The position numbers were made by a program, and so were the translations under genes. A stretch of 64,000 bases of DNA from Candidatus Methylobacter favarea (GTDB lineage Bacteria > Pseudomonadota > Gammaproteobacteria > Methylococcales > Methylomonadaceae), in the NCBI RefSeq assembly GCF_902806695.1, contig NZ_CADCXN010000001.1:1-64000 (forward strand). The letters are read 5' to 3'. Each line of letters begins with the position of its first letter. Position 1 is the stretch's first letter. Below, piece by piece: positions 32,047 through 47,163 of the stretch. The notes beneath the pieces were generated by a model. The model did no database searches and had not been told where the DNA came from. It saw nothing but the letters and a program-made list of their open reading frames with translations.

Positions 32047-32633
32047 CACTTCGCAATGTTATTGATTAGAAATACTTTTTCTAAAAAAGCCCCTCAATAT
32101 AAAATTTGTGTAATACAAAGGGGTTGGCGTAACCAAAGTCAGCTATTTGTTTAGACGCATTAACGCGTATCATTTCCGCATTCGACATACCTGTCGAACT
32201 TCAGATTGCTCTCGACGCTCGGGAACAGGTATTTCAGGCTCTCTTTTTGACCGCTGCAACAATAAAATCAGAGGCCTTTTTTATTCACCCTGAGTTTAAG
32301 ATACCTCTATAACCCCCACCTCTTCTGTACGTAAAGACACAAAACCAAAGCCGCATCTTTGCTCCGTGTGCTTGCCTCTTGGACAAATTGAATTAGTAGG
32401 AGCAAATGCAATTGTTACGCTACAAGTCTTTTCTTTTAAAGCTTGCCTAAAGCTTCAAGGTAGTGAAGGAAAGCTGAAAAATTCTGAGCGTAATAAATCC
32501 CTGTCTTTTCCGAAATACCCAAACGTTATACTTAGGCAAGAGTTGATAATTCTTGAACTCATTAAATAACGTCGTATAAAAGCCCAACAAAATAAACTTG
32601 ATTAGCAAAAATCTTCCGCTGAGCGCGAATATC
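32047..32633. other. Intergenic region after tRNA-Ser
   Basis: No convincing gene. A CCCCT/AGGGG stem near 32090-32125 is followed, in the leftward direction, by T residues and could terminate leftward transcription. An open frame at 32366-32569 matches no family. Confidence 0.35.
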
Positions 32634-32778
32634 GGCAGGGAGTCATGTCAGTATACAGGGAGGCGGGCTAGGAAAGCTATCCCTGGCTTCCGGATTCCTG
32701 CCCAAATCCATCTGGAACGAATTTGCATTAACCCGAAGGGTGTCAGGCAGTGAGGATAGCCTGACATGACTCCCTGCC
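32634..32778. repeat. 145-bp element with 18-bp perfect inverted ends (MITE-like)
   Basis: GGCAGGGAGTCATGTCAG at 32634-32651 is the exact reverse complement of CTGACATGACTCCCTGCC at 32761-32778, with 109 bases between. No coding sequence lies inside. No clear target-site duplication flanks it. It could be a miniature inverted-repeat element or a large structured RNA hairpin, located between tRNA-Ser and the CRISPR locus. Confidence 0.6.
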
Positions 32779-32917
32779 TGAACGACGAAAATTAATACAT
32801 TTTTCGTATTGGCGGACGATTCTTGCTGATCAGAAATAACTATTATGCTGAAATCTATACTTTAACCAGCTGAACGGTTGGCATTAAAGCGAGCTCGACG
32901 GCAAATCAATAAGCAAT

Positions 32918-33033
32918 AAAAAGCCCCCTTAAGTTTTAACTTTGCGAGGGCCGGGGTCGCTTGAAAGCGTTGCCTACGGAATAACGTTCCATTGGTATGA
33001 AAAGCAAAACAATAGGCTATAGTTGGTTACACT
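32918..33033 (-). ncRNA. tracrRNA of the type II-C CRISPR system
   Basis: Leftward RNA of about 116 bases. The anti-repeat spans 33033 down to 32994. The first 21 bases are exactly complementary to the 3' 21 bases of the crRNA-sense repeat. Then comes a 4-base tracr bulge, five pairs to repeat positions 11-15 (two of them G-U), a 3x3 loop of U, and pairs to repeat positions 1-7 with one mismatch. The tail has a GGAA/UUCC hairpin, a GGCAACGCU stretch like the Neisseria tracrRNA, a CGCU/AGCG hairpin and a terminator (GCCC stem with GGGGGC, inner AAGTT/AACTT, then TTTTT at 32922-32918). It overlaps the region just before the cas9 start. The 5' end and promoter are not determined. Confidence 0.8.
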
Positions 33034-33062
33034 ATGGCCTTAGATTAACCTTAATGACACCA

Positions 33063-36000
33063 ATGGGCAAGAAAATTTTAGGACTGGATTTAGGCAGCAA
33101 TTCAATCGGCTGGGCATTACTTGGAGAAAAAAACGGCAAGCCTGCTGAAATTATCAATCTTGGCAGCCGGATTTTCACCAAAGCAGTGGAAGAAAAAATA
33201 CCCACACCCAAAAATGTAAAGCGCAGAAATGCACGATTAGCAAGGCGAATTATCCAGCGACGAGCGAGACGTAAATTAAGGATGCTCAATTATCTGATAA
33301 TGTTAAGACTGCTGCCGCGAGAATTGGCCGGCCATGCTGCGCCGGAAATTATCCTCAACGAACTGGGTAACCCTTATTTTTTACGCGCCAAAGCGCTCGA
33401 TAATTCCCTGACTCCGTTTGAGTTAGGCCGTGTATTTCTGCATCTTGTCCAGCGGCGCGGTTTTTTAAGTAACAGAAAAACCTTATTAGGCGATATGGCA
33501 GATGATCCTGATGTGTTAGATGTTTTAACCGAGCTTGAAGGTAAAAATGACAATAGCTCAGAACGCGCCAAAGAAGAAACGGCCTTTAAAGCGGCCATTA
33601 GTCAATTAAAAAATACTATCGCTGAATTGGGTTTTCGCACGGTTGGGGAATATCTCGCTTCCTTAGACCATCATGACTGCAAACGTAACCGCTCCAGAGA
33701 TGGCGGGCATTTGCGTACAGATCGTCAAATGTATCGTGACGAACTGGATTTAATCTGGGAACAGCAAAAACAACATCATGCTGCTTTAACCGACGACGTA
33801 AAGGAACAGCTGGAAGAAATTATTTTTAAGCAAAGGCCTTTAAAACTAAATTCTGACCGCAGAGGGAAATGTTCGTTGGAACCCGCCCGAAAACGCGCCC
33901 GGATAGCCCGACTGGAAAGCCAGAGATTCCGATATCTTCAGGACATTAACAATCTGCAATATTTTGACTACTACACAGAAAAATCAGTATCCCTCAATGA
34001 ACCTGCCAAACAAAAACTGGTGCAACTGTTTGAAACTACCGCAGATGTGAGTTTTGCAGGCATAAGAAAAAACTTGGGTTTTGATAAAACCCTGGAATTT
34101 AACCTGGAAAACGGCAATAAAAAACTGAAAGGCAATATTACCGCCTGTGAAATCCGCAAACAATTGCCCGAATGGGATTTATTTGATGATGCCAAGCAAC
34201 ACGCTTTAGTAGAAGACCTGCTTACTATCACTAAAAAATCGGTACTTAAAAACCGACTCATGAATCACTGGGCATTCAGCGCTAATACGGCAGTACAACT
34301 TTGCCTGTTAGAATTTGAGCCGGGACATAGCAACCATTCCATAAAAGCCATCAATAAACTGCTGCCTTTTTTGCAACAAGGCCGGATTTATTCCGATGCG
34401 CGGGTTAGCGCAGGTTATGGCTATGAAGTAACAAACATAATTGCCAATGACAGATTAGGCATACCTCCACAACTTCCTAATCCTATCGTACAAAAAGCCT
34501 TGCACGAATTACGGCGGCTCATTAATGCCATTATTGCTGAATACGGCAAACCGGATGCCATTCGGGTTGAAATGGCGCGCGATCTGGAAATGAATACCAA
34601 GCGCTATCAGGAGTTTATCACGCAACAAGCCAAAAACGCCAAAGCCAACGATGAAGCTGTCAGCAAATACCAGGAAATGGCACAGAAAAATCCACAGCTC
34701 GCTTTATCAAAATACCCCGCCAAAACAGACAAACTCAAATACCGTTTATGGCAAGATCAAAATTATTGCTGTGCCTACAGCGGCAAATCCATCAGCCTGG
34801 CTACATTATTCAGCGCCGAGATTGATATAGACCATATCCTGCCTTACAGTGCATCGCTCGATGACTCATTCATGAATAAAGTGGTGTGTTTTGCAGGCGA
34901 AAATCGCTTTAAAGGCCAAAAAACGCCAGTGGATGCTTTTGGCGGCAATACTGATAAATGGAATCAGATTACTCAAGCCATAAGCCGCTGGCATAAATCG
35001 CTTAAATCCAAAAAAGCACGCTTTTTTACCACGGCTGCCGAATTGCAAAAACGTGACTTTATCAGTACCCAACTTAATGATACACGCTACATTAGCAAAA
35101 TTGCGCAAACCTACTTAGCCGAATTGGGCGCGGATATTTCTGTTAGCAAAGGCATTACTACGGCTTGGCTCAGGCATCAATGGGGATTGAATAGTTTAAT
35201 TGGCGAGACCGATAAAAAAGAGCGTACTGATCATCGTCATCATGCTATTGATGCTGTCGTTATCGCGTGTGTCGATAGGCGCTTGTATCAGGATTTAGTT
35301 AATACCGCCCACGACCTTGAACGCAAACAATCCGAACTCAACATGAAAGATATTCATATTGATCCGCCTTGGCTGAATTTACGTGAGGATTGCCAGCAAG
35401 CACTAAATAACGTGATTATTGCTCATACGCCGCAACGCAAATTAATCGGGGAACTGCATGAAGTGACCGGAGCCGGCTTTATTGACGGAGTAGGCAACGT
35501 TAATCGTAAAAACCTGGATGGCAACTTCACTCAGGTGAATAAGATTATTGATCCTGATGTCAAGACGCTGGTTGAAGAGCATTTGAGAATTTATAGCAAT
35601 AATCCAAAGACGGCCTTTGCTGAAGGCGTAACCGTTTTTCACAAAGACGGCAAAACACCTATAAAGCGCGTTCGTATCGTGCAATCCAAAACCACGCTCG
35701 CCAAGCTTGAAAACACCAAATTTGGCGCAAAAGATAAACAAGGCAAAGTCTTTAAATGGCTTGCTTTTGGCAACCTGCATCATGTGGAAATAATTAGACA
35801 CAACAAGACTGGCAGTTATTCCGGGCAATTTGTAACCATGATGGAAGCCTCGCATCGAGCCAAAGGCATTAAAATGAACCGCCAGCCGATTATTAAAAAG
35901 GATCATGGTGAAGATTATGAATTTATCATGGCGCTGCATATTAATGACTTGATAAGCATTGAGAAAGACGGGCAACGAGTGTTTTACCGTATACAAAAAT

Positions 36001-36158
36001 TGGATTCTGGCGGCAATAGGATAATGATTCGCCTAAATACAACAACCGTGTTGGACCATAAAAGCGAGGAAATTTATTTTAGTATTAATGAAAACTCATT
36101 TACCACTTGGCAATTTCAAAAACACTCGATAAACGCTATCGGAAAATTAATCGAATGA
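33063..36158 (+). CDS. cas9: CRISPR-associated endonuclease Cas9, type II-C
   Basis: 1031 residues, a short Cas9 of Neisseria type. RuvC-I: LGLDLGSNSIGWAL with Asp9. Arginine-rich bridge helix: RNARLARRIIQRRARRKLRM. RuvC-II: RVEMARDLEM with Glu503. HNH: DIDHILPYSASLDDSFMNKV with His591 and Asn605. RuvC-III: DHRHHAIDAVVIACVD with His727 and Asp730. All nuclease residues are intact. The C-terminal third should contact the PAM. ATG 33063 gives the normal N-terminus MGKKILGLDLG; ATG 33054 is possible. An open frame from 32997 adds residues that merely translate the tracrRNA anti-repeat (GYSWLHY). No strong ribosome site is visible. Coupled by ATGA to cas1; no csn2 or cas4 is present. Confidence 0.95.
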   Translation: MGKKILGLDLGSNSIGWALLGEKNGKPAEIINLGSRIFTKAVEEKIPTPKNVKRRNARLARRIIQRRARRKLRMLNYLIMLRLLPRELAGHAAPEIILNELGNPYFLRAKALDNSLTPFELGRVFLHLVQRRGFLSNRKTLLGDMADDPDVLDVLTELEGKNDNSSERAKEETAFKAAISQLKNTIAELGFRTVGEYLASLDHHDCKRNRSRDGGHLRTDRQMYRDELDLIWEQQKQHHAALTDDVKEQLEEIIFKQRPLKLNSDRRGKCSLEPARKRARIARLESQRFRYLQDINNLQYFDYYTEKSVSLNEPAKQKLVQLFETTADVSFAGIRKNLGFDKTLEFNLENGNKKLKGNITACEIRKQLPEWDLFDDAKQHALVEDLLTITKKSVLKNRLMNHWAFSANTAVQLCLLEFEPGHSNHSIKAINKLLPFLQQGRIYSDARVSAGYGYEVTNIIANDRLGIPPQLPNPIVQKALHELRRLINAIIAEYGKPDAIRVEMARDLEMNTKRYQEFITQQAKNAKANDEAVSKYQEMAQKNPQLALSKYPAKTDKLKYRLWQDQNYCCAYSGKSISLATLFSAEIDIDHILPYSASLDDSFMNKVVCFAGENRFKGQKTPVDAFGGNTDKWNQITQAISRWHKSLKSKKARFFTTAAELQKRDFISTQLNDTRYISKIAQTYLAELGADISVSKGITTAWLRHQWGLNSLIGETDKKERTDHRHHAIDAVVIACVDRRLYQDLVNTAHDLERKQSELNMKDIHIDPPWLNLREDCQQALNNVIIAHTPQRKLIGELHEVTGAGFIDGVGNVNRKNLDGNFTQVNKIIDPDVKTLVEEHLRIYSNNPKTAFAEGVTVFHKDGKTPIKRVRIVQSKTTLAKLENTKFGAKDKQGKVFKWLAFGNLHHVEIIRHNKTGSYSGQFVTMMEASHRAKGIKMNRQPIIKKDHGEDYEFIMALHINDLISIEKDGQRVFYRIQKLDSGGNRIMIRLNTTTVLDHKSEEIYFSINENSFTTWQFQKHSINAIGKLIE

Positions 36159-37057
36159 TTAAGCGTACACTGGACATCAGCGAGCCTGCTTACCTGCATT
36201 TAAAGCATCAGCAATTATTGATTGATAAAAAAGGCGAAACTATGGCGCAAATAGCAATTGAGGATTTAGGCGTTGTTATCTTGCAGAACCCGGCTATTGT
36301 TATTACACAAGCCGTAATTATTGCTTGCCAGAAAAACAACGTAGTCTTGATATTTTGTGACGAGCGGCATTTACCTTATTCGGTTTTGTTACCGATTAAT
36401 GAAGGTAATAACCTACACAATAAAGCATTGAAACAACAAATGGGCTTAAAGTTGCCGACTAAAAAACGTTTATGGCAACAGGTTGTCAAACGCAAAATTA
36501 CCGAGCAAGCAAACACCTTAAAAATGCTGGATAAAACCTATAAACCATTGGAACGATTGGCTGAAGTCGTTAAAGCAGGTGATCCGGAAAATTTGGAAGC
36601 GCAAGCCGCCCAAAAATACTGGAAACTGCTTTTTGGAAATGAGTTCAGGCGCGATGTGGAATTGGACGGCATCAACAGTTTATTAAATTACGGTTATTCC
36701 ATTATGCGGGCTATGGTAGCTCGCGCCATTGTCGGCAGTGGCCTACACCCAACTATCGGTCTGCATCACCGCAACCAGTATAACGGCCTGTGCCTGGCTG
36801 ACGACCTGATGGAACCCTTTAGACCCTGGGTGGATTTTAAGGTATATCAAATGGCGCAAAGCGATCCACAGCTTCAGGTGAATAAAGCGTCAAAAATTCC
36901 TCTGCTTAATTTATTATCTGAAACGGTGCTGTGGGATAAACAAAATATGCCCTTAATGGTTGCCTGTCATTATATGTTGGCTAATCTTAAACGCGCTTAT
37001 GAAGACAATACCATTATGCTGGATTATCCGAAAATAATTAGCCAGCGGCAGCCATGA
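36155..37057 (+). CDS. cas1: CRISPR-associated endonuclease Cas1 (type II)
   Basis: 300 residues. Integrase subunit for spacer acquisition. Metal ligands are visible: Glu163 (FGNEFRRD), His204/His205 (GLHHRNQYNG) and Asp216/Asp217 with Glu220 (LADDLMEPFRPWVD). The ATG at 36155 overlaps the cas9 stop (ATGA) and gives the usual N-terminus MIKRTLDISEPAYLHLKHQQ; a longer frame from 36107 lies inside cas9. The sequence is of the short type II-C branch. It is followed by cas2 with another ATGA overlap. Confidence 0.96.
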   Translation: MIKRTLDISEPAYLHLKHQQLLIDKKGETMAQIAIEDLGVVILQNPAIVITQAVIIACQKNNVVLIFCDERHLPYSVLLPINEGNNLHNKALKQQMGLKLPTKKRLWQQVVKRKITEQANTLKMLDKTYKPLERLAEVVKAGDPENLEAQAAQKYWKLLFGNEFRRDVELDGINSLLNYGYSIMRAMVARAIVGSGLHPTIGLHHRNQYNGLCLADDLMEPFRPWVDFKVYQMAQSDPQLQVNKASKIPLLNLLSETVLWDKQNMPLMVACHYMLANLKRAYEDNTIMLDYPKIISQRQP

Positions 37058-37383
37058 GCTTTGGCGGATTAAACTCAGTGTGGGTGATTGTCATCTTTGA
37101 TCTTCCAACGGACACCCCGCAAGCCAGAAAACAATACACAGTTTTCAGAAAACATCTGCTTGATAATGGGTTTGGTATGATGCAGTATTCAGTTTATATG
37201 CGCCACAGCGCGAGTGACGAAAATGCACAAGTCCATGCAAAACGGATAAAATCCCGTTTACCGCCAGATGGCGAAGTTCGAATTATTAAGATAACCGATA
37301 AACAGTTTGGCAGAATTGAGGTTTTTTATGGCAAAAAACACAAGAAGATTGAACAAGCACCGGATCAACTGTCACTTTTTTAA
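37054..37383 (+). CDS. cas2: CRISPR-associated protein Cas2
   Basis: 109 residues. Ferredoxin-like fold; forms the Cas1-Cas2 acquisition complex. VWVIVIFDLPTDTPQARKQY carries Asp16 of the family, followed by FRKHLLDNGFGMMQYSVYMR and GEVRIIKITDKQFGRIEVFY. It overlaps cas1 by 4 bases and its stop lies inside the loop of an 11-bp hairpin before the array. Confidence 0.95.
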   Translation: MSFGGLNSVWVIVIFDLPTDTPQARKQYTVFRKHLLDNGFGMMQYSVYMRHSASDENAQVHAKRIKSRLPPDGEVRIIKITDKQFGRIEVFYGKKHKKIEQAPDQLSLF

Positions 37384-37433: not shown

Positions 37434-37667
37434 AGTGTAACCAACTATAGCCTACCTGCAAATCACAACCACACAGAACCTTTCTTGCTTGAGTGTGAGA
37501 GTGTAACCAACTATAGCCTACCTGCAAATCACAACAAGACGCAGATACAGGCGCAGGTGGCCGGTAGTGTAACCAACTATAGCCTACCTGCAAATCACAA
37601 CCATGAGTTCAGTAACAAAAGAAACCGCATCAGTGTAACCAACTATAGCCTACCTGCAAATCACAAC
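37434..37667 (-). CRISPR. CRISPR array, 4 repeats and 3 spacers (type II-C)
   Basis: Four identical 36-bp repeats at 37434-37469, 37500-37535, 37566-37601 and 37632-37667, separated by three spacers of exactly 30 bp (66-bp period). On the plus strand each repeat starts AGTGTAACCAACTATAGCC and ends ACAAC; in crRNA sense (minus strand) it starts GTTGTGATTTGC and ends GGTTACACT, the usual II-C polarity. The direction matches the leftward tracrRNA. The terminal TACACT occupies the place of the TACAAT promoter element of Neisseria repeats. No repeat has degenerated, so the array is young, small or trimmed. Confidence 0.97.
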
Positions 37668-37672
37668 ATCGC

Positions 37673-38092
37673 CTAGTAATTTTCATCACTATTTCCCTTA
37701 CTGCTTGGCTTTGGCTTGCTACCCGTTCCTACACCTAAACGTTCAGTCTTATAGCCAGTCTCGAGATAACCTCCACCTGTTCCTACGCCCAATCTTTTGG
37801 ATTCGTGAAAGCGTTTTACTATACTGCTGCCAGTGCCTGCGCCTATCCGTTCTGAATTGCCAGCGGATTCAGGGAGTCCCTCCCCTGACCCTGTCCCTGT
37901 GCTCGCGCTTCCGGAACTATTTTTGGTTGCCAATAAACTTGCTATTATTATGGAATTTTTCATTTGATCCGCAGTTGTTGGTAAAAATCGGGCTTGCTTC
38001 ACATCATGAGTATCTGGAAGAGGTAAGGCCACTATACGGTTTGGTGCCAAGGTACTAAAAAGAAAGGTCAGGCAAAGGGGTAGTAGTTTCAT
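37673..38092 (-). CDS. Secreted repeat protein, unknown
   Basis: 139 residues, unrecognised. An N-terminal signal-like segment (MKLLPLCLTFLFSTLAPNRI) is followed by a Ser/Gly/Thr-rich region with three tandem 18-residue units opening SERIGAGTG, SKRLGVGTG and TERLGVGTG, preceded by a degenerate STGTGSG copy. The tail is Lys/Ser-rich and low complexity. A GGAGAA ribosome-like site lies before the ATG. Its stop is 5 bases from the last CRISPR repeat and it reads leftward into the array, so run-through could feed the array. Function unknown; no Cas role is implied by sequence. Confidence 0.65.
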   Translation of the reverse strand: MKLLPLCLTFLFSTLAPNRIVALPLPDTHDVKQARFLPTTADQMKNSIIIASLLATKNSSGSASTGTGSGEGLPESAGNSERIGAGTGSSIVKRFHESKRLGVGTGGGYLETGYKTERLGVGTGSKPKPSSKGNSDENY

Positions 38093-38607: not shown

Positions 38608-41600
38608 ATGAGAACGATAGCGGAATATAAACACATGCTAAACCTGCGCGATCGCAGGCGTTATTTGCGACTGGAAGATCCGGGAGGAAATGATGCACCG
38701 ATCAGAAACGAGCTTTTCAGCAACGAACGCCTGGCCCAACACGCGGACAGTTTAGCCAAAGCGCAAAACATAGGCATAGGGCCTAAAGGCCGCAAATTAA
38801 TCCCGCGAGTTCGGGAAAACTCCCGAGTATTACTGGAGGCCTATAAAGCGGTTGGTAAAGCCTCAATCGAGCAGCGAGCCATTACTCCCGCTGCAGAATG
38901 GCTGCTGGACAATTTCCATGTGATCGAAGAACAGGTAAATGACATCAACATTCAGCTGCCGGAAAGCTATTACCGGCAATTGCCCAAGCTGGCTGCTGGA
39001 TTTCTGGCCGGATATCCGCGCGTATACGGCATTGCCTGGGCTTTAGTGGCCCATACTGACAGCCGTTTTTCCCCCGAAACATTGACCCTTTTTATAAAAG
39101 CGTATCAGGAAACTCAATCTCTACATATTGGAGAACTGTGGGCAATACCTATCACGCTGCGTATCATGTTAATTGAAAACCTGCGGCGTTTGGCGATTAG
39201 AATAATGCGCTCGCAGACCGGGCGGCGCCTGGCTGATGAATATGTTGATCAACTTGAGAAATCCGAGTCGGCAACCTTGCCTGTAGTATTGCCGTCCGCG
39301 CCATTACGTCGAGCTTTTGTGGTGCAACTCGTGCAGCGTTTACATGATCCTCATCCGGGGCTGACTCCTTCGCTTGAGTTTCTGAATGAATGGCTGGCCG
39401 ATCAGAATATCACCGTAGATGAGATCGTCCATCAGGAGCATGCCCTTCAGATCGCCGCTAATCTCACCATGCGCAATATCATCACCAGCATGCGAGCGAT
39501 ATCAGCCTTCGATTGGCCAAACTTCGTTGAGAAAGTAAGTCTGGTTGACGATTGTTTGCGTGCTCATCCTATCTATAGCGCGATGGACTTTCTCAGCCGC
39601 GACCGATATCGCCATGCAATTGAAGAACTGGGCAAGCACTCGCCTCACCCGGAGCTGGAAATCGCTCAAAAGGTGATGGATAAGATTCATCGTCTTCCTG
39701 AAACCACAACCGACAAAAGAAAGCAGGAGCCAGGGTATTATCTGATAGGCCCCGGCCGCACTGAATTCGAGCGCGAATTAAACTGCCATCCGCCCTTCCT
39801 TCAGCGACTGCTGCGCAAATACATTACCCATGCAGCGCTCTCTTATCTGAGCAGTTTGTTTATAGTTACCGCGGTGTTGCTTGCGCTCATCGTAGATGCC
39901 GCCAGTAAAGCTGGACTTGGCGAATTGCAGATTTTTATTCTTGCCCTGCTCGCTATATTCCCTATTTCAGATATCGCCGCCGCCCTGGTTAACCGAATTA
40001 TTATCAGGGTGATTCCACCGGCTCATATACCGCGACTTGAGCTTAAGGAAGGCATTGACAGCGAACTGCGAACTTTTGTCGTCGTGCCTACCCTGCTTAT
40101 GAGCGAAGCCGGTGTTAAAATGCAAATTGATGAGCTGGAAATTCTTTATCTATCCAATCCATCCGGCGATGTTGTCTTTGCTCTTTTATCGGATTGGGCT
40201 GATGCGGATCAGGAAACTACGCCTGAAGATGCTCACCTGCTAAGCCTGGCCACTGCCGGAATAGCCGCGCTTAACGTCAAATATAACGAGCAGCGCTTTT
40301 ATCTGTTTCACCGCAAACGCTTGTGGAATTCCAGTGAAGAAAAATGGATGGGATGGGAACGCAAGCGCGGAAAATTGCAGGAGTTCAATCGGCTTCTGCG
40401 AGGCGCGGAAAATACCTCTTTTATAACCATTGACGGGAAAGCCGCTGTTGCCCCGGCCGGTGTTCGTTATGTCATTACCCTCGATGACGATACCAAGCTG
40501 CCTATCGGGGCTGTATCAGAATTAGTCGGAACAGCCGCTCATCCGCTTAATCATCCTGTTATAGATACGGTAACGCGTTGTGTCATTGAAGGTTATGGAA
40601 TTCTTCAGCCCCGGGTAACGGCTACGTTGCCGCATAGAGGCGAGCGTTCTATTTTTCATCGGCTTTTCTCCGGGGCATGCGGTATGGATGCCTATTCAAC
40701 CACGGTATCCGAAGTCTATCAGGATCTTTTCGGACTGGGAACTTACAGCGGCAAAGGATTGTACGATGTCGATGCCTTTGAAACTTCCCTGGCCGGCCGC
40801 GTCCCGGAAAACTCCCAGCTTAGCCATGACTTGTTTGAAAGTACTTATGCCCGTTGCGGCCTAGTCAGCGACATTGAAGTGTTTGAAGAATTTCCTTCGG
40901 ATATTGAAGTTGCGGCTTATCGCTCCCACCGCTGGGCGCGGGGCGACTGGCAGTTGCTGCCCTGGATTTTCGGACCTCTTGGAAAAGGCATGCCGATGAT
41001 CGGCCGCTGGAAAATGCTGGACAATCTGCGCCGCTCGCTGTCTGCGCCAGGAGCATTTTTCCTTTTGCTAGCGGCCTGGACAATGCCAAATGCTCCGCAA
41101 ATCGTTCTATTAGGCCTGGTATTGACAGCGTTGGCTTTTCCGGCGATTTTAACCCTCGCAAGCGGGTGCGCATCAATATATGCCGGGCCTCTACGCTCTC
41201 AGCTGCGCGCCCTTGCAGAAAATCTGGGCAAGAGTCTGGGTAATAGCCTGGTCAACTTAATGCTGCTTGCCCAAAATGCCTGGCTTATGCTGGATGCGAT
41301 TGTAACGACCCTGGTGCGGGTTTTTATAACCCGGCGCAAGTTACTCCTGTGGGTTACCGCCCGGCAGACAAAAACCGCTGCCGAATATTCCCCGAAAAGA
41401 GTAATTCAGCCTTTAGGCCGCACTACCGTTCTCGTTGTATCTGTCAGTCTGGTAATTTTTCTTTTTAATCCTGCTGGGCTGGAAATTGCATGGCCAATTC
41501 TTTTATTGTGGTGGCTGGCTCCCGTTTTTTCCCATATATTGAGTCTTCCTCCGCGGCCGGAGAGGGAGGAAGCACTGCTCCCTGAACAGGCTCTGCAACT

Positions 41601-44600
41601 GCGTCTTATCGGGCGCCGCACCTGGCGTTTTTTTACAACTTTCGTGACACCCGAAGAGCATTACCTGCCGCCGGATAATTATCAGGAGGACCCGGAGCCG
41701 GTGATAGCTCACCGCAGTTCGCCCACCAATTTTGGCCTCTATCTGTTATCGGTGCTGGCAGCGCATGACTTTGGCTGGCTCGGCATCCTGGATACCGTTG
41801 AGCGGCTGGAGGCCACTTTATCGACATTGAACGGCCTTCCCAGACTGAACGGGCATTTTTATAACTGGTATGACACTAGCGATCTGCGCCCCCTGGAGCC
41901 CCGATATGTGTCAACCGTAGATAGCGGCAATCTTGCCGCCAACTTACTGGTGCTGGCCCAAGGCTGCGGGGATATTGCCCGCCAGCCGCTGGCAATTTCG
42001 ATGGCGGCGAACGGGATTTTGGATACCCACAGAATCCTGTCCCATAGTTTTGCCAAAATCGCTGACGACCGGCGAATAGTTACAGTAAGCCGGGAAGAAC
42101 TTCAGAAAAAATTAACCAAGATTGAAACTTTATTAGCCAATTCCCCAGGCAGCCATGAAGAGGGCCTGCAGTTTTGGCGGCAACTGACTTCATCTGCCGA
42201 AACCCTGATTGATATGGTGCGCGCCTATAATACAGAACGCGGAGACTCAAGCGATAGCGAAGTATTCATCTGGGCTTCTTTGCTGCGGGATGATATTCGC
42301 TCTCATCAACGCGATATGGAGAAGCTGGGGCCGTTTATCCATAACATAGTCCCGCTTGAACAGTATACAGACTCTCCTCAAGCGTACAAATGGACAGAAG
42401 TGACAGGGCGTTTACAGAAAATTTCGGAAAATGCCCGGGAACTGTTTTTGAATATGAATTTCGGGTTTTTATATGATCAGGACCGGTTTTTATTTTCTCT
42501 CGGGTACCGCGTGGAAAACGGTATTCCGGACGATAGCTATTATGATCTTTTAGCCTCGGAAGCGCGTCTGGCCAGTCTGATCGCTATAGCCAAGCGCGAG
42601 GCGCCGAAGGCTCACTGGCTTCACCTGGGGCGCCGCGTCACGCGGGCAGCCGGAGGAACGGTATTGTTATCGTGGTCCGGCTCCATGTTCGAATACCTGA
42701 TGCCATCATTGATATCGTATACGCCGCGCTATAGTCTGCTGGATGAAACTTGCCGGACAGTTATTAAGCGCCAGATCGAATATGGCAAGGAATGCGGCGT
42801 TCCGTGGGGAGTATCCGAATCGGCGTTCAACGGGCGCGACCGTGAATTCACCTACCAGTATTCGCCTTTCGGCGTGCCGGGTTTGGGCATGAAGCGGGGA
42901 CTCGGCCATGATTTGGTAATTGCCCCTTATGCTACGGCTTTGGCGGCCATGTACAATATTCCTGCGGCTGCCGAGAATTTTCAGCGCCTGGAAGCAATCG
43001 GCGCATTGGGACCTTTCGGGTATTACGAAGCCCTTGATTTTACGCCGTCAAGACTGGCAGAAAACCAGCATGTGGCCATCGTGCGTTGCTATATGACTCA
43101 TCATCAGGGCATGTCGCTGTTAGCCCTGGCAAATGTTTTGCATGACGGCAAAATGCGCCACCGTTTCCATAATGTGCCATTAATAGAGGCGGCGGAATTA
43201 CTGCTGCAGGAACGGGTTCCGCGCGGTGCGGAAAGCAGTATTCCCGACCACACCCAGGCTCAGGCTGAGGCCGTGCAGTTAGTGCAGCCGCCCGTACGTC
43301 GTGTGCATTCGCCCATGGCCAGCACACCTTCAGCGCATTTGCTCTCCAATGGCCGCTATGCTGTGATGATCACGGCCGCAGGTTCCGGCTACAGTATGTG
43401 GAAAAAGCTGGCAGTGACGCGCTGGCGGGAAGATGTAACCCGTGATAGCTGGGGCAGCTATATTTATTTGCGTAATTTGGCAAACGGTCAGGTCTGGTCA
43501 GCGGGTTATCAACCTACTGTAACGGTTCCCGACAAGTACGAAGTAGTTTTCCTTGAAGACCGGGCGCGAATTTTCCGGGTAGATGGAAACCTGGTAAGCC
43601 GTCTGGAAATTGTGGTATCACCTGAAGACGATGCGGAAATCAGACGCTTGAGCCTGACCAATAACGGAGCTCGCACCCAACACATCGAGATTACCTCCTA
43701 TGCCGAAATCGTACTCGCCCCCCCGCTGTCGGACATCGCTCATCCTGCCTTTTCCAATTTGTTCGTGCAAACCGAATTTCTGCCTCAGGCACATGGATTA
43801 ATTGCGCATCGACGACCGCGCTCGACAAATGATCCCCATACCTGGGCGGCACATATACTGGCCGGTGCGGATGCTGACGCGGGTCTTCAATATGAAACCG
43901 ACCGGTTTCGCTTTGTGGGCAGAGGACAAACGCTGCGGGCCCCGGTCGCCGTAATGGATGGCCGCCCGCTCACTAATACGGTAGGGGCGGTGCTGGATCC
44001 GATTTTCAGTTTGCGTACGCGTGTCAGTATTGAATCGGGCGCAACCGTTCACGTAGCTTTCACAACCCTGATTGCGTCGTCGCGTCAAGTTGTTGAAGAT
44101 CTGATAGACAAATACCATAGCCCAGCCACTTTCGAGCGGGTTTCTGCTCTGGCCTGGACGCACGCCCAGGTCCAGTTGCGCCATTTGCGCATCAAGCCGG
44201 ATGAAGCCCAGTTATTTCAAGCCCTGGCTAATCGCTTGCTCTACGCCGATCAGTCATTGCGCCCAAGCAGCAAGCTCATGCAACTCAATAGATTAAATGT
44301 CACCGGTCTGTGGCGCTTGAGTATCTCCGGCGATCGCCCTCTCATCCTGCTGCGAGTGACGGGGACAGAAGACCGGGCTATAGTTGATCAGTTATTACGC
44401 GCCCATGAATACTGGCGGATGAAACGGCTAGCGGTCGATATCGTCATATTAAGCGAAAAAGGCACAACTTATGCGGATGAATTAATAAATTTATTAGAAG
44501 GAATGGTGCGCGATAATCAAGCTGTTACAGCTCACCATGAGCATGGCGAGCACGGCGAGATTTTTGTCTTGCGCGCCGATATGCTCTCTGATGATGAAAG

Positions 44601-47163
44601 ATTACTTCTGCGAACTGCTGCTCGGGCCTTGCTCGTGAGCAGCCGGGGTACTTTGGCTGAACAATTATTAAGACTTCCCATCCCTGCCGAAATCTTCATT
44701 CCCGCCAAACCAGCCTATGCATCGGGCGCTGAAACACCCGCGCCAAAGCCGCCGAAGCTTGAGTATTTCAACGGCCTGGGCGGATTTGCCGAAGATGGAC
44801 GGGAATACGTGATTGTACTGGATAAGGGCCAATGGACGCCGGCGCCGTGGATAAATGTTATCGCCAATGCTGAATTCGGTTTTACAGTATCGGAATTGGG
44901 CAGCGGCTGTACGTGGTGTTTAAACAGCCGCGAAAACCAATTGACACCGTGGTCCAATGACCCCGTCGTCGATCCGCCCGGAGAAATTTTTTATTTACGG
45001 GACGATAATACAGGCGATTTATGGAGTCCAACTGCGCTGCCGATCCGTATAGAAAATGCAAGCTATGTGATCCGCCATGGTCACGGCTATAGCCGGTTTG
45101 AGCATGCATCGCATGGAATACACAGTGAATTACTGCAATTTGTAAGTCCGGACGATCCGGTCAAGATTTCGTCTCTGCTGCTTAAGAATATTTCCGGGCG
45201 CACTCGCAAATTAACCATAACGGCTTATATAGAATGGGTGTTGGGCGCTTCGCGAACAGTGACTGCGCCTCATATCATTACTGAGCTGGATAGCGCTACA
45301 GGGGCTCTGTTTGCCGCTAACACATGGCACCCGGAATTTGGCGAACGCATTGCTTTCGCCGATCTTGCCGGCACGCAAACTGCCTGGACTGGCAACAGAA
45401 CTGAATTTATCGGGCGTAACGGCAGCCTGGATTCGCCGACGGCTTTACGTTTGTCTTCAGAACTTAAAAACAGCGTCGGGGCCGGACTCGACCCCTGTGC
45501 GGCAATGGGGGCAAGCCTGCAACTGGCACCCGATGAACAAGTCGAGATTGTTTTTTTGCTGGGTCAGGGCAGGAATCGCGACCATGCCCGCGAGCTGGTA
45601 AAGCGTTATCGTTCTACCCCGGTGCAAACCACTATCGCTGCGGTTAAGGAGCAATGGCGGCAAGTACTGACTAAAGTCCAGGTAAAAACCCCTGATCGGG
45701 CTCTGGATTTAATGATAAACGGCTGGTTATTGTACCAGACCCTGAGCTGCCGCATGTGGGCTCGCGCCGCATTTTATCAGGCCGGCGGGGCCTTCGGCTT
45801 CCGGGATCAGCTGCAGGATAGCATGGCGCTTGCCGTAGCCAAACCGGATGTGGTGCGCGCCCATATTCTCCGTGCTGCCGCCCGCCAGTTCGCGGAAGGA
45901 GATGTTCAGCACTGGTGGCATCCCCCCGCTAACCGGGGTGTACGTACTCATTTTTCGGATGACCGTATCTGGCTGCCCTATGTCATTTCTCACTATGTAA
46001 AGGTAACGGGAGACGCCGATATACTCAATGAGATTACGCCTTTTCTTGATGGCCCGTTGCTGACTCCGGAACAGGAAGACGCTTATTTCGAGCCGACCGT
46101 ATCCACCCATCAGGCAACTGTGTTTGAACATTGCGCGCGAGCGCTTGATTTGAGCCTGGCAGTCGGCGCCCATGGTCTGCCCTTGATAGGCAGCGGCGAC
46201 TGGAATGATGGCATGAACCGCGTCGGCCACGAAGGTAAAGGAGAAAGCGTGTGGCTTGCCTGGTTTTTGATTTCTGCCTTGTCGGAATTCGCCACTTTGG
46301 CCGAAACGCAGGGATATTCAGACCATGCCGCGCGATGGCGCGACCATGCCGCAAAACTTAAACTAGCGGTAGAAGCCGAAGGCTGGGATGCAGCCTGGTA
46401 CCGCCGCGCTTATTTTGATGACGGCACACCACTGGGCTCTGCCTCGAACGCGGAATGCCGCATTGATTCAATTGCCCAAAGCTGGGGTATTATTTCCGGC
46501 GCAGCCGAACCGGAACGAGCCCGACGCGCCATGAATTCGGTAAAGGAATACCTCATCCGTTATGGCGATGATCTGGTATTGCTGTTTACGCCGCCTTTTG
46601 ATAAAACACCACTGGATCCCGGCTACATCAAAGGATATCTCCCCGGTGTGCGGGAAAACGGCGGCCAGTATACGCATGCCGCAATCTGGTGTGTCATTGC
46701 TTACGCGCTGCTTGGGGAAGGCGATCAGGCTGCAGAACTCATACGCATGCTGAACCCGGTAAATCGCACCTCAAGCCGGACCGGCGTCTATGCTTATAAG
46801 GTTGAGCCGTATGTAATTGCCGCCGATATTTATGCCGTGCCGCCTCATGTGCGGCGGGGCGGCTGGACATGGTATACCGGTGCGGCAGGATGGTTTTATC
46901 GGGCCGGGCTGGAATGGATGCTGGGATTGCAAATACGCGCCGGTCATATATATTTCAACCCGTGTATTCCGCATGAATGGCGCAGCTATAACCTGTATTA
47001 CCAACATCAGGATTGCTCCTATGAGATTACTGTGGAAAACCCGAATGGCGTGTCAAAAGGTGTGGTTCTAATCGAATTGGATGGAACAGAGCAGTCTCAG
47101 GAGGCGGGTATTCCGCTGCTGCAGGATAATCAGATCCATCAGGTTCGGGTAGTGCTTGGTTGA
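38608..47163 (+). CDS. ndvB: Cyclic beta-1,2-glucan synthase, NdvB/ChvB type (GT84-GH94)
   Basis: 2851 residues, the size of Brucella Cgs and Rhizobium NdvB. Residues about 411-460, 813-853 and 940-978 are membrane segments. Between the first two lies the glycosyltransferase-84 domain with the DDD motif (Asp626-628 in ITLDDDTKLP). After about 1030 comes a glucoamylase-like domain (STVDSGNLAANLLVLAQGC), then two GH94 beta-sandwich regions (near 1572 and 2051) and the C-terminal GH94 phosphorylase barrel with general acid Asp2531 in GSGDWNDGMN, which trims chain length. It makes cyclic osmoregulated periplasmic glucan from UDP-glucose. Stand-alone gene; no ndvA-like exporter is adjacent. Confidence 0.93.
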   Translation: MRTIAEYKHMLNLRDRRRYLRLEDPGGNDAPIRNELFSNERLAQHADSLAKAQNIGIGPKGRKLIPRVRENSRVLLEAYKAVGKASIEQRAITPAAEWLLDNFHVIEEQVNDINIQLPESYYRQLPKLAAGFLAGYPRVYGIAWALVAHTDSRFSPETLTLFIKAYQETQSLHIGELWAIPITLRIMLIENLRRLAIRIMRSQTGRRLADEYVDQLEKSESATLPVVLPSAPLRRAFVVQLVQRLHDPHPGLTPSLEFLNEWLADQNITVDEIVHQEHALQIAANLTMRNIITSMRAISAFDWPNFVEKVSLVDDCLRAHPIYSAMDFLSRDRYRHAIEELGKHSPHPELEIAQKVMDKIHRLPETTTDKRKQEPGYYLIGPGRTEFERELNCHPPFLQRLLRKYITHAALSYLSSLFIVTAVLLALIVDAASKAGLGELQIFILALLAIFPISDIAAALVNRIIIRVIPPAHIPRLELKEGIDSELRTFVVVPTLLMSEAGVKMQIDELEILYLSNPSGDVVFALLSDWADADQETTPEDAHLLSLATAGIAALNVKYNEQRFYLFHRKRLWNSSEEKWMGWERKRGKLQEFNRLLRGAENTSFITIDGKAAVAPAGVRYVITLDDDTKLPIGAVSELVGTAAHPLNHPVIDTVTRCVIEGYGILQPRVTATLPHRGERSIFHRLFSGACGMDAYSTTVSEVYQDLFGLGTYSGKGLYDVDAFETSLAGRVPENSQLSHDLFESTYARCGLVSDIEVFEEFPSDIEVAAYRSHRWARGDWQLLPWIFGPLGKGMPMIGRWKMLDNLRRSLSAPGAFFLLLAAWTMPNAPQIVLLGLVLTALAFPAILTLASGCASIYAGPLRSQLRALAENLGKSLGNSLVNLMLLAQNAWLMLDAIVTTLVRVFITRRKLLLWVTARQTKTAAEYSPKRVIQPLGRTTVLVVSVSLVIFLFNPAGLEIAWPILLLWWLAPVFSHILSLPPRPEREEALLPEQALQLRLIGRRTWRFFTTFVTPEEHYLPPDNYQEDPEPVIAHRSSPTNFGLYLLSVLAAHDFGWLGILDTVERLEATLSTLNGLPRLNGHFYNWYDTSDLRPLEPRYVSTVDSGNLAANLLVLAQGCGDIARQPLAISMAANGILDTHRILSHSFAKIADDRRIVTVSREELQKKLTKIETLLANSPGSHEEGLQFWRQLTSSAETLIDMVRAYNTERGDSSDSEVFIWASLLRDDIRSHQRDMEKLGPFIHNIVPLEQYTDSPQAYKWTEVTGRLQKISENARELFLNMNFGFLYDQDRFLFSLGYRVENGIPDDSYYDLLASEARLASLIAIAKREAPKAHWLHLGRRVTRAAGGTVLLSWSGSMFEYLMPSLISYTPRYSLLDETCRTVIKRQIEYGKECGVPWGVSESAFNGRDREFTYQYSPFGVPGLGMKRGLGHDLVIAPYATALAAMYNIPAAAENFQRLEAIGALGPFGYYEALDFTPSRLAENQHVAIVRCYMTHHQGMSLLALANVLHDGKMRHRFHNVPLIEAAELLLQERVPRGAESSIPDHTQAQAEAVQLVQPPVRRVHSPMASTPSAHLLSNGRYAVMITAAGSGYSMWKKLAVTRWREDVTRDSWGSYIYLRNLANGQVWSAGYQPTVTVPDKYEVVFLEDRARIFRVDGNLVSRLEIVVSPEDDAEIRRLSLTNNGARTQHIEITSYAEIVLAPPLSDIAHPAFSNLFVQTEFLPQAHGLIAHRRPRSTNDPHTWAAHILAGADADAGLQYETDRFRFVGRGQTLRAPVAVMDGRPLTNTVGAVLDPIFSLRTRVSIESGATVHVAFTTLIASSRQVVEDLIDKYHSPATFERVSALAWTHAQVQLRHLRIKPDEAQLFQALANRLLYADQSLRPSSKLMQLNRLNVTGLWRLSISGDRPLILLRVTGTEDRAIVDQLLRAHEYWRMKRLAVDIVILSEKGTTYADELINLLEGMVRDNQAVTAHHEHGEHGEIFVLRADMLSDDERLLLRTAARALLVSSRGTLAEQLLRLPIPAEIFIPAKPAYASGAETPAPKPPKLEYFNGLGGFAEDGREYVIVLDKGQWTPAPWINVIANAEFGFTVSELGSGCTWCLNSRENQLTPWSNDPVVDPPGEIFYLRDDNTGDLWSPTALPIRIENASYVIRHGHGYSRFEHASHGIHSELLQFVSPDDPVKISSLLLKNISGRTRKLTITAYIEWVLGASRTVTAPHIITELDSATGALFAANTWHPEFGERIAFADLAGTQTAWTGNRTEFIGRNGSLDSPTALRLSSELKNSVGAGLDPCAAMGASLQLAPDEQVEIVFLLGQGRNRDHARELVKRYRSTPVQTTIAAVKEQWRQVLTKVQVKTPDRALDLMINGWLLYQTLSCRMWARAAFYQAGGAFGFRDQLQDSMALAVAKPDVVRAHILRAAARQFAEGDVQHWWHPPANRGVRTHFSDDRIWLPYVISHYVKVTGDADILNEITPFLDGPLLTPEQEDAYFEPTVSTHQATVFEHCARALDLSLAVGAHGLPLIGSGDWNDGMNRVGHEGKGESVWLAWFLISALSEFATLAETQGYSDHAARWRDHAAKLKLAVEAEGWDAAWYRRAYFDDGTPLGSASNAECRIDSIAQSWGIISGAAEPERARRAMNSVKEYLIRYGDDLVLLFTPPFDKTPLDPGYIKGYLPGVRENGGQYTHAAIWCVIAYALLGEGDQAAELIRMLNPVNRTSSRTGVYAYKVEPYVIAADIYAVPPHVRRGGWTWYTGAAGWFYRAGLEWMLGLQIRAGHIYFNPCIPHEWRSYNLYYQHQDCSYEITVENPNGVSKGVVLIELDGTEQSQEAGIPLLQDNQIHQVRVVLG

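What the first reader, a model, noticed from the sequence alone, without database searches (positions are those of the whole stretch)
32918..33033. tracrRNA found in front of cas9, with anti-repeat pairing along the whole 36-nt repeat
The minus strand holds an anti-repeat whose first 21 bases match the repeat perfectly. It continues in register with a 4-base bulge, five pairs, a U-rich internal loop and seven more positions with one mismatch. The tail shares a GGCAACGCU stretch with the Neisseria tracrRNA and ends in a stem with a T tract. This makes the locus a complete, apparently functional II-C system with a new tracrRNA sequence. The perfect-then-bulged layout is the same as in Neisseria.
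Basis: partly seen in the sequence, partly recalled or inferred. Interest (0 to 1): 0.75.

Follow-up and report, generated by a model that had tools for sequence, protein, structure and literature searches.

The report
Methanotroph Cas9 system's tracrRNA gene
This is the small helper RNA gene of an ordinary-looking CRISPR-Cas9 immune system in a methane-eating bacterium; its relatives change in step with the CRISPR repeats they pair with, which is strong evidence that the gene is real.

Summary
Minus strand 33033-32918 is a tracrRNA gene: 21 bases pair perfectly with the 3' part of the 36-nt repeat, the duplex covers 32 of 36 repeat positions, then come a nexus hairpin, a small hairpin and a terminator. 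It is the only non-array copy in the genome within 3 mismatches. The same gene lies antisense, 28-32 nt before cas9, in 26 of 28 loci compared. Repeats and anti-repeats covary: none of 50,000 reshufflings of partners pairs as well; the hairpins covary too. It is a type II-C tracrRNA family without a match in Rfam: a new member of a known kind. Transcription is untested, and the window's -10 box and cas9 ribosome site look poorer than in most relatives. Two leads go further. In 27 of 33 members the free tracrRNA is predicted to lock its anti-repeat onto its own tail (weak covariation). And one genus keeps this tracrRNA beside a Cas9 lacking RuvC catalytic residues, with no array of this family in four genomes, while three control genomes show theirs.

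The parts
32918..33033 (-). tracrRNA gene (116 nt with its T tract)
   Evidence: anti-repeat, hairpins, terminator; family model match at exactly these bases, 135.5 bits, E 3.1e-29 (the window is one of the 25 sequences the model was built from)
33013..33033 (-). anti-repeat, perfect 21-nt part, pairs with repeat positions 16-36
32993..33012 (-). anti-repeat, bulged lower part (4-nt bulge, UUUxUUU loop, CAUACC facing GUUGUG)
   Evidence: duplex fold; CUUUUCAUACC nearly invariant in the family
32973..32995 (-). nexus-like stem-loop 1 (CC-A-AUGGAA...UUCCGU-A-GG)
   Evidence: at one pair 14 sequences have both sides changed, 3 of 8 pairs show such changes
32958..32969 (-). small stem-loop 2 (CGCU-UUCA-AGCG)
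   Evidence: both-sided changes at all 4 pairs
32918..32952 (-). terminator: stem GCCCUC...GGGGGC, then T tract
33036..33070 (-). likely tracrRNA promoter; a -35-like TTGCCC lies inside the first cas9 codons; at the family's -10 place the window reads GTTAAT instead of TATAAT
   Evidence: comparison of 26 loci; inference
33063..36158 (+). cas9 (start at 33063 as in the relatives, or in-frame ATG at 33054; the longer open frame from 32997 runs into the tracrRNA gene and is probably not the real start)
   Evidence: TIGR01865, E 2.2e-189; catalytic residues present
36155..37057 (+). cas1, type II
   Evidence: TIGR03639 cas1_NMENI, E 1.5e-88
37054..37383 (+). cas2
   Evidence: TIGR01573, E 9.2e-19
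37434..37667 (-). CRISPR array, four identical 36-nt repeats and three 30-nt spacers; crRNA sense is the minus strand

Best explanation
Minus-strand 33033-32918 encodes the tracrRNA of a type II-C CRISPR-Cas9 locus. It is transcribed away from cas9, from a promoter that overlaps the cas9 start. The anti-repeat pairs with the repeat part of each crRNA over nearly the whole 36 nt; the crRNA-bound RNA forms the nexus and the second hairpin, which Cas9 holds; the 3' end is made by an intrinsic terminator. Cas9 loaded with this dual RNA cuts matching invader DNA. Shown here by sequence and comparison: the pairing, the hairpins, their covariation, and the conserved place beside cas9. Inferred: transcription, the ends of the RNA, Cas9 binding, cutting and the PAM.
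For: Perfect 21-nt anti-repeat, the only non-array copy in the genome within 3 mismatches. Duplex over 32 of 36 repeat positions, nexus, second hairpin, terminator. Full-length Cas9 with the seven checked active-site residues, type II Cas1, Cas2, array. tracrRNA upstream and antisense of cas9 in 26 of 28 loci, 28-32 nt from the start codon in all 26 (25 by script, L049 by eye from its printed sequence). Own repeat/anti-repeat partners make 19.43 of 20 Watson-Crick pairs against 16.98 for swapped partners in 23 loci, and 19.08 against 16.54 in 13 distinct types; 0 of 50,000 permutations reach this in either set; 9 of 20 positions have both-sided changes. Nexus and second hairpin: 7 of 12 pairs with both-sided changes, 0 of 500 shuffles on all five measures. 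Beyond the loci used to build the model it hits 3 further genomes of the order and 6 of the class; 8 of these 9 hits lie upstream of a cas9, within 400 nt. RNase III is encoded in the genome.
Against: No RNA evidence. The window's -10 box is degenerate (GTTAAT) and its cas9 lacks a recognisable ribosome site. Three spacers only, no exact viral match over 22-23 nt. The free RNA folds only modestly better than shuffles (z -1.59, 12 of 200 as good). The simple scan lists neither this terminator nor a promoter here. The family co-occurrence count (26 genomes shared between 28 with cas9 and 28 with tracrRNA, of 237) is partly built in, because the model was made from tracrRNAs found beside these cas9 genes. 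In the slid control of the hairpins, a slide of -1 keeps 5 pairs with both-sided changes and a covariation score of 0.149 against 0.170, though only 49% of cells pair.
Confidence: 0.95

Rival explanations
1. The gene is the tracrRNA of a locus that is fading: sequence still good, but tracrRNA and Cas9 too weakly expressed to serve.
For: -10 box GTTAAT in the window against exact TATAAT in 16 of 26 loci; no Shine-Dalgarno-like stretch before the window's cas9, against 20 of 25 loci scored with one; short array, no exact spacer matches; several relatives keep tracrRNAs beside cut-down cas9 genes (L051, L059, L060, L062, L094).
Against: Cas9 is full length with all seven checked active-site residues; the anti-repeat and all four repeats match perfectly; the window's Cas9 shows low dN/dS against L050 and L037 (0.04 and 0.05, with synonymous sites near saturation); L039 and L040 have a similar -10 region (GTTAGT) and carry arrays; L041, L042, L045 and L048 also lack the ribosome-site stretch, and the first two carry arrays.
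Confidence: 0.18
2. The anti-repeat is an out-of-place CRISPR repeat or a chance match, not a tracrRNA.
For: 21 of its bases are those of the repeat.
Against: It departs from the repeat beyond base 21, is followed by covarying hairpins and a terminator, and is kept in place in its relatives; chance expectation about 2e-6.
Confidence: 0.01
3. An addition to the best explanation: in its free state the tracrRNA is locked. Anti-repeat GCCUA pairs with UAGGC of the tail and UUUUCAU pairs with the 5' strand of the nexus; crRNA pairing opens the lock and lets the nexus form, so that Cas9 prefers tracrRNA that already carries a crRNA.
For: Minimum-energy fold of the free RNA in 27 of 33 members; lower in energy than the forced nexus fold in 28 of 33, by 5.7 kcal/mol in the window; 94.5% of cells paired against at most 47.7% when slid; an A-U to G-C change on both sides in L099 and L101.
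Against: Covariation support is weak: 2 pairs with both-sided changes (47 of 500 shuffles reach it), further pair types 277 of 500, covariation score and changed cells 6 of 500. L099 and L101 are long branches that join in the tree, so the change may be one event. The conserved GUAGGC may be kept for Cas9 contacts or for its two nexus pairs. Predicted folds only; the window's fold makes up 5% of its ensemble.
Confidence: 0.3

Closest known systems
Neisseria meningitidis type II-C tracrRNA (guide sequence printed in PMC9674691, passage seen)
   Same: Anti-repeat well paired at the distal part and bulged lower down, nexus hairpin, terminal stem; 8-mer GCAACGCU in the tail; the solved Cas9 chains nearest to this Cas9 (best 8ja0, 6kc8, 6jdq) are, from memory, N. 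meningitidis Cas9.
   Different: Short nexus here; an extra 4-bp hairpin between nexus and terminator; lower stem of 5 pairs plus 1 with a UUUxUUU loop; the shared 8-mer partly forms the arm of that extra hairpin. The Neisseria structure is recalled, not folded here.
Campylobacter jejuni type II-C locus (PMC3656092, passages seen)
   Same: Minimal system with three cas genes and a tracrRNA; there a -10 box sits in the 3' part of each repeat. Here the 23 repeats compared end TACACT (21) or TACAAT (2) in crRNA sense, which could serve the same end.
   Different: No sequence comparison was made; promoter activity in these repeats is not shown.
S. pyogenes tracr-L, a tracrRNA acting as a natural single guide on the cas promoter (PMC11417352, passages seen)
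   Same: A tracrRNA gene beside cas9 with a link to cas control sequence.
   Different: Type II-A; needs a long form with its own 5' guide. [quoted passage not shown] No such guide was looked for here.
Francisella novicida tracrRNA-scaRNA regulation by Cas9 (PMC8616872, passage seen)
   Same: A model for what an array-less Cas9 with tracrRNA, as in L054-L057, might do: bind DNA without cutting.
   Different: Type II-B from memory; no scaRNA-like partner was looked for or found here.

Membership tests
tracrRNA of a type II CRISPR-Cas system | anti-repeat complementary to the repeat of the neighbouring array, outside the array | tested here: met
tracrRNA of a type II CRISPR-Cas system | conserved hairpins 3' of the anti-repeat | tested here: met
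   covariation, 0 of 500 shuffles
tracrRNA of a type II CRISPR-Cas system | intrinsic terminator | tested here: met
   predicted stem plus T tract; not listed by the simple terminator scan, whose loop limit is 8
tracrRNA of a type II CRISPR-Cas system | transcribed, processed with crRNA, bound by Cas9 | not testable with these tools
   needs RNA and protein work
Type II-C CRISPR-Cas | cas9, cas1, cas2 and no fourth cas gene | tested here: met
   of the next open frames, 37673-38092 minus matches no NCBIfam or Pfam family and 38608-47163 plus is a 2851-aa protein (by size neither csn2 nor cas4; not searched)
Type II-C CRISPR-Cas | Cas9 falls in the II-C clade | tested here: inconclusive
   best solved matches are chains recalled as N. 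meningitidis Cas9, above S. thermophilus 1 Cas9 (254 against 146.9 bits); no tree against II-A and II-B was built
[quoted passage not shown]
   TACACT or TACAAT at the end of all 23 repeats compared; no TGN directly before it (by eye); no transcript data
Rfam families (release 15) | match to a curated covariance model | tested here: not met
   at gathering cut-off only a tRNA in the window; in 32300-33200 up to E 10 only mir-1231 at E 5.5, not over this gene

The most novel reading that the evidence does not exclude
This tracrRNA family has a second role that does not need a CRISPR array. In one related genus the tracrRNA and its promoter are kept beside a Cas9 that has lost RuvC residues, with no array of this family and no neighbouring cas1 or cas2. 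There tracrRNA-Cas9 would act as a natural RNA-guided DNA-binding or nicking regulator, aimed by a cellular RNA that pairs with the anti-repeat, and the locked free fold of the tracrRNA would set which RNAs may open it.
Probability: 0.15. Interest if true: 0.78.

Novelty: new member of a known kind. Interest (0 to 1): 0.36.

Why it matters
The window supplies a complete guide-RNA set (repeat, tracrRNA, Cas9) for a Cas9 lineage of methanotrophs, without a match in Rfam and not met in the paper searches made here. The alignments show which bases follow the repeat and which are fixed, which is what is needed to design a single guide. The bound and free folds make a clear, testable prediction about how crRNA loading is controlled. 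The related RuvC-defective, array-less Cas9 clade could be a natural case of Cas9 turned regulator.

Tried and rejected
Chance match: rejected. A second tracrRNA elsewhere in the genome: none within 3 mismatches of the 21-nt anti-repeat. A self-paired, single-guide-like form of the tracrRNA in the array-less genus: thought of by eye, not borne out by the minimum-energy folds. Spacer targets: no exact match of the last 22-23 nt of the three spacers in viral contigs; one of the three was also tried in the own genome with up to 3 mismatches and hit only the array; the other two were not. PAM: not determined. A shared promoter for cas9 and crRNAs from the TACACT element: considered, no conserved -35 seen by eye, left as inference. 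The energies labelled 'anti-repeat kept free' are wrong (the anchor also matches inside the anti-repeat) and were replaced. The pattern was out of register by one base, missed the known arrays of G000 and G164, and is not used; one search replaces it. One search is a fair test for G023, G025 and G026, whose own tracrRNAs it found, but not for G024, whose anti-repeat has one more base and was not found. Paper searches: 'tracrRNA, type II-C, anti-repeat, Cas9 orthologs' 10 papers; 'Cas9, tracrRNA, Methylovulum', two of three terms needed, 10 of 5,177 listed, none of the 10 with Methylovulum; 'methanotroph, type II-C, CRISPR, Cas9' none; 'methylococc, Cas9, tracrRNA' one review on bacterial editing, not opened; tracrRNA with covariance model and anti-repeat, one paper; tracrRNA conformation and autoregulation, 57 papers, 12 listed, none on a locked free tracrRNA by title; six phrases for naturally inactive or solitary Cas9, none; five words including 'catalytically inactive' and 'orphan', 29 papers, 12 listed, none on this by title. 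The main text of the Cas9 catalogue PMC7606464 has no word beginning 'methylo' (supplements not seen), nor has that of PMC3936727. These do not prove absence from print.

Full report
What is there. The window comes from a 4.07 Mb genome, G000. Of the 15 named loci with a related Cas9, 14 bear names that I recall as Methylococcales and one is a MAG labelled Alphaproteobacteria. The window holds cas9 from 33063 (or 33054) to 36158, cas1 36155-37057, cas2 37054-37383 and an array of four identical 36-nt repeats with 30-nt spacers at 37434-37667. Read in crRNA sense (minus strand) the repeat is GTTGTGATTTGCAGGTAGGCTATAGTTGGTTACACT. On the same strand, just before cas9, 33033-33013 is complementary to its last 21 bases. 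The search of the whole own genome with up to 3 mismatches finds 5 places, four in the array and this one; the control pattern finds none.

Structure. Folding repeat and anti-repeat together gives 22 contiguous pairs, a 4-nt bulge, 4 pairs, a 3x3 U loop and 5 pairs, and repeat base 1 also pairs across a mismatch at base 2: 32 of 36 positions. With the whole tracrRNA that last pair is given up to the nexus. Then follow a nexus-like hairpin, a 4-bp hairpin and the terminator.

Relatives. Cas9 relatives were found in 28 of 237 genomes of the family and at 15 named loci, with overlap between the two sets. Of 32 loci oriented (window included), three are second copies of the same contigs and L043 has a tracrRNA identical to that of L038; of the remaining 28, 26 carry this tracrRNA antisense to cas9. 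Its anti-repeat starts 28-32 nt before the cas9 start codon in all 26, exactly 29 nt in 19 of them (25 by script, L049 by eye). The two without it are L019, whose cas9 match lacks the first 47 residues, and L061, a 60-residue remnant; neither has a model hit up to E 1. A covariance model from 25 of the 26 (R1) hits 28 of 237 genomes of the family, 31 of 311 of the order and 7 of 369 drawn from the class. In the family 26 genomes have both (Fisher p 4e-30), but that count is partly circular, since the model was built beside these cas9 genes. The independent part is three further genomes of the order (L102-L104) and six of the class: all three and five of the six carry a cas9 downstream on the other strand within 400 nt; the sixth, L100, has none in the 11 kb taken. 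G002 and G089 in the family carry the match without a usable cas9: L094 has a 20-codon remnant, L095 only the tail of the tracrRNA.

Covariation. In 23 loci with a repeat and a tracrRNA, own partners make 19.43 of 20 Watson-Crick pairs (18 to 20), swapped partners 16.98; reduced to 13 distinct types, 19.08 against 16.54; 0 of 50,000 permutations reach the observed total in either set. Nine of the 20 positions show changes on both sides. Sixteen of these loci were first tested alone over 21 positions: 20.56 against 18.51, 0 of 20,000. In a few loci only one repeat copy was held. Permutation ignores relatedness, so the number is not a probability, but the changed positions are many. In the nexus and second hairpin 7 of 12 pairs have changes on both sides, 93.7% of cells pair, and 0 of 500 shuffles reach any of the five measures; sliding the partner by -1 keeps a fair covariation score (0.149 against 0.170) but only 49% of cells pair.

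Promoter. In 16 of 26 loci an exact TATAAT lies between the cas9 start and the anti-repeat, and a TTGCCC- or TTGCTC-like -35 is common inside the first codons of cas9 (TATAAT counted by eye from that listing). So the tracrRNA promoter overlaps the cas9 start codon and its ribosome-binding region, and a cas9 mRNA with a leader longer than about 29 nt would carry sequence complementary to the anti-repeat. The window reads GTTAAT at the -10 place; L039 and L040 are alike (GTTAGT). A TARTCT with 17-bp spacing is a possible substitute; this is inference. The window also has no AAGG, AGGA, GGAG or GAGG before its cas9 start, while 20 of 25 loci scored have one; its in-frame ATG at 33054 lies where others have that stretch.

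Function of Cas9 in the window. D10, E504, D591, H592, N615, H728 and D731 (counted from 33060) are present. RNase III is encoded elsewhere in the genome. Against function speak only the weak -10 box, the missing ribosome site and the lack of exact spacer matches.

A possible switch. Without crRNA, the minimum-energy fold pairs GCCUA of the anti-repeat with UAGGC of the tail and UUUUCAU with AUGGAA, which excludes the nexus. This holds for both helices in 27 of 33 members and for the GCCUA-tail helix in 30 of 33. In a second set of 33 (alignment A2) the locked fold is lower in energy than the forced nexus fold in 28, by 5.7 kcal/mol in the window, and higher in five (L039, L042, L045, L062, L094) (in some members fewer pairs could be forced, so their gaps are rough). 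On A2 94.5% of cells pair against at most 47.7% for slid versions, but only 2 pairs have both-sided changes and 47 of 500 shuffles reach that; the covariation score is reached by 6 of 500. The A-U to G-C change in L099 and L101 is the best single sign; these two are long branches joined in the tree. I hold this as a lead, not a result.

A related oddity. In genus g10, L054 and L055 encode open Cas9 frames of 1016 and 1003 residues that have lost D10 (to S) and E504 (to Q and R); L057 (972 residues, open) has lost E504 (Q) and N615 (K); L056 keeps D10 but its frame is broken. H592 is kept in the three open ones, and L055 has the checked HNH residues intact, so nicking is not excluded there; in L054 D591 is G. 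The three open ones form one clade (100/100). No cas1 or cas2 like the window's lies in the 10 kb taken around each of these cas9 genes, and the Cas1 family matches elsewhere in these genomes are weak (best E 2.5e-13). The repeat pattern of this family (GTTGTGR, 18-22 any, GGTTACA) has no match in any of the four genomes, while in three control genomes it finds whole arrays: 4 in G000, 5 in G164, 10 in G115. A near-complement of their anti-repeat is likewise absent but for scattered singletons with 2-3 mismatches in G023, G025 and G026. An array with a quite different repeat is not excluded. dN/dS between L054 and L055 is 0.28 (dS 0.28), higher than in the intact pairs that could be scored (0.04-0.15) but well below 1. 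The tracrRNA body differs at 2 of 87 bases between L054 and L055 and at 7 of 87 between L055 and L057, where dS is 1.08. Slow decay of a lost system is the plain rival to a regulatory role.

Verdict. The finding is correct: a new member of a well-known kind. Its interest lies in the clean comparative proof, the missing Rfam match, the testable lock of the free RNA and the array-less, RuvC-defective relatives.

Noticed in passing
L054-L057 (genomes G023-G026, genus g10): Cas9 with lost RuvC catalytic residues (D10 and/or E504) in three open frames, tracrRNA with TATAAT promoter kept in all four, no neighbouring cas1/cas2, no array of this family in the genomes: possible natural Cas9 regulator or slow decay.
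   Followed up: partly
L100:5104-5198 (G660): A lone CRISPR repeat of this family joined directly to the tracrRNA tail and terminator with no anti-repeat between; no cas9 within the 11 kb taken.
   Followed up: no
L094, from 5278 (G002): tracrRNA with a 20-codon cas9 remnant, followed from 5493 by an array with a different, about 28-nt repeat (looks like type I-F from memory): one CRISPR type seems to have replaced another at the site.
   Followed up: no
L041:3831-3971 (Methylovulum miyakonense): The tracrRNA contains a second AUACCAAUG stretch, an internal duplication, giving 141 nt where most others have 99-123.
   Followed up: no
window 32997-33062: The cas9 open frame extends upstream into the tracrRNA gene to an ATG at 32997; automatic annotation may place the cas9 start too early.
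   Followed up: no
window 32634-32651 and 32761-32778: An 18-base inverted repeat (ggcagggagtcatgtcag) bounds a stretch of about 145 bp beyond the tracrRNA terminator; it may be a small mobile element remnant. Seen by eye.
   Followed up: no
L097, L098 arrays: In these two the repeats end TACAAT in crRNA sense instead of TACACT, a better -10 box, with the anti-repeat changed to match.
   Followed up: partly
G000 contig C61, 1662-2534: A second, different Cas1 (E 2.6e-102 to PF01867) lies in the same genome, so another CRISPR system is probably present.
   Followed up: no
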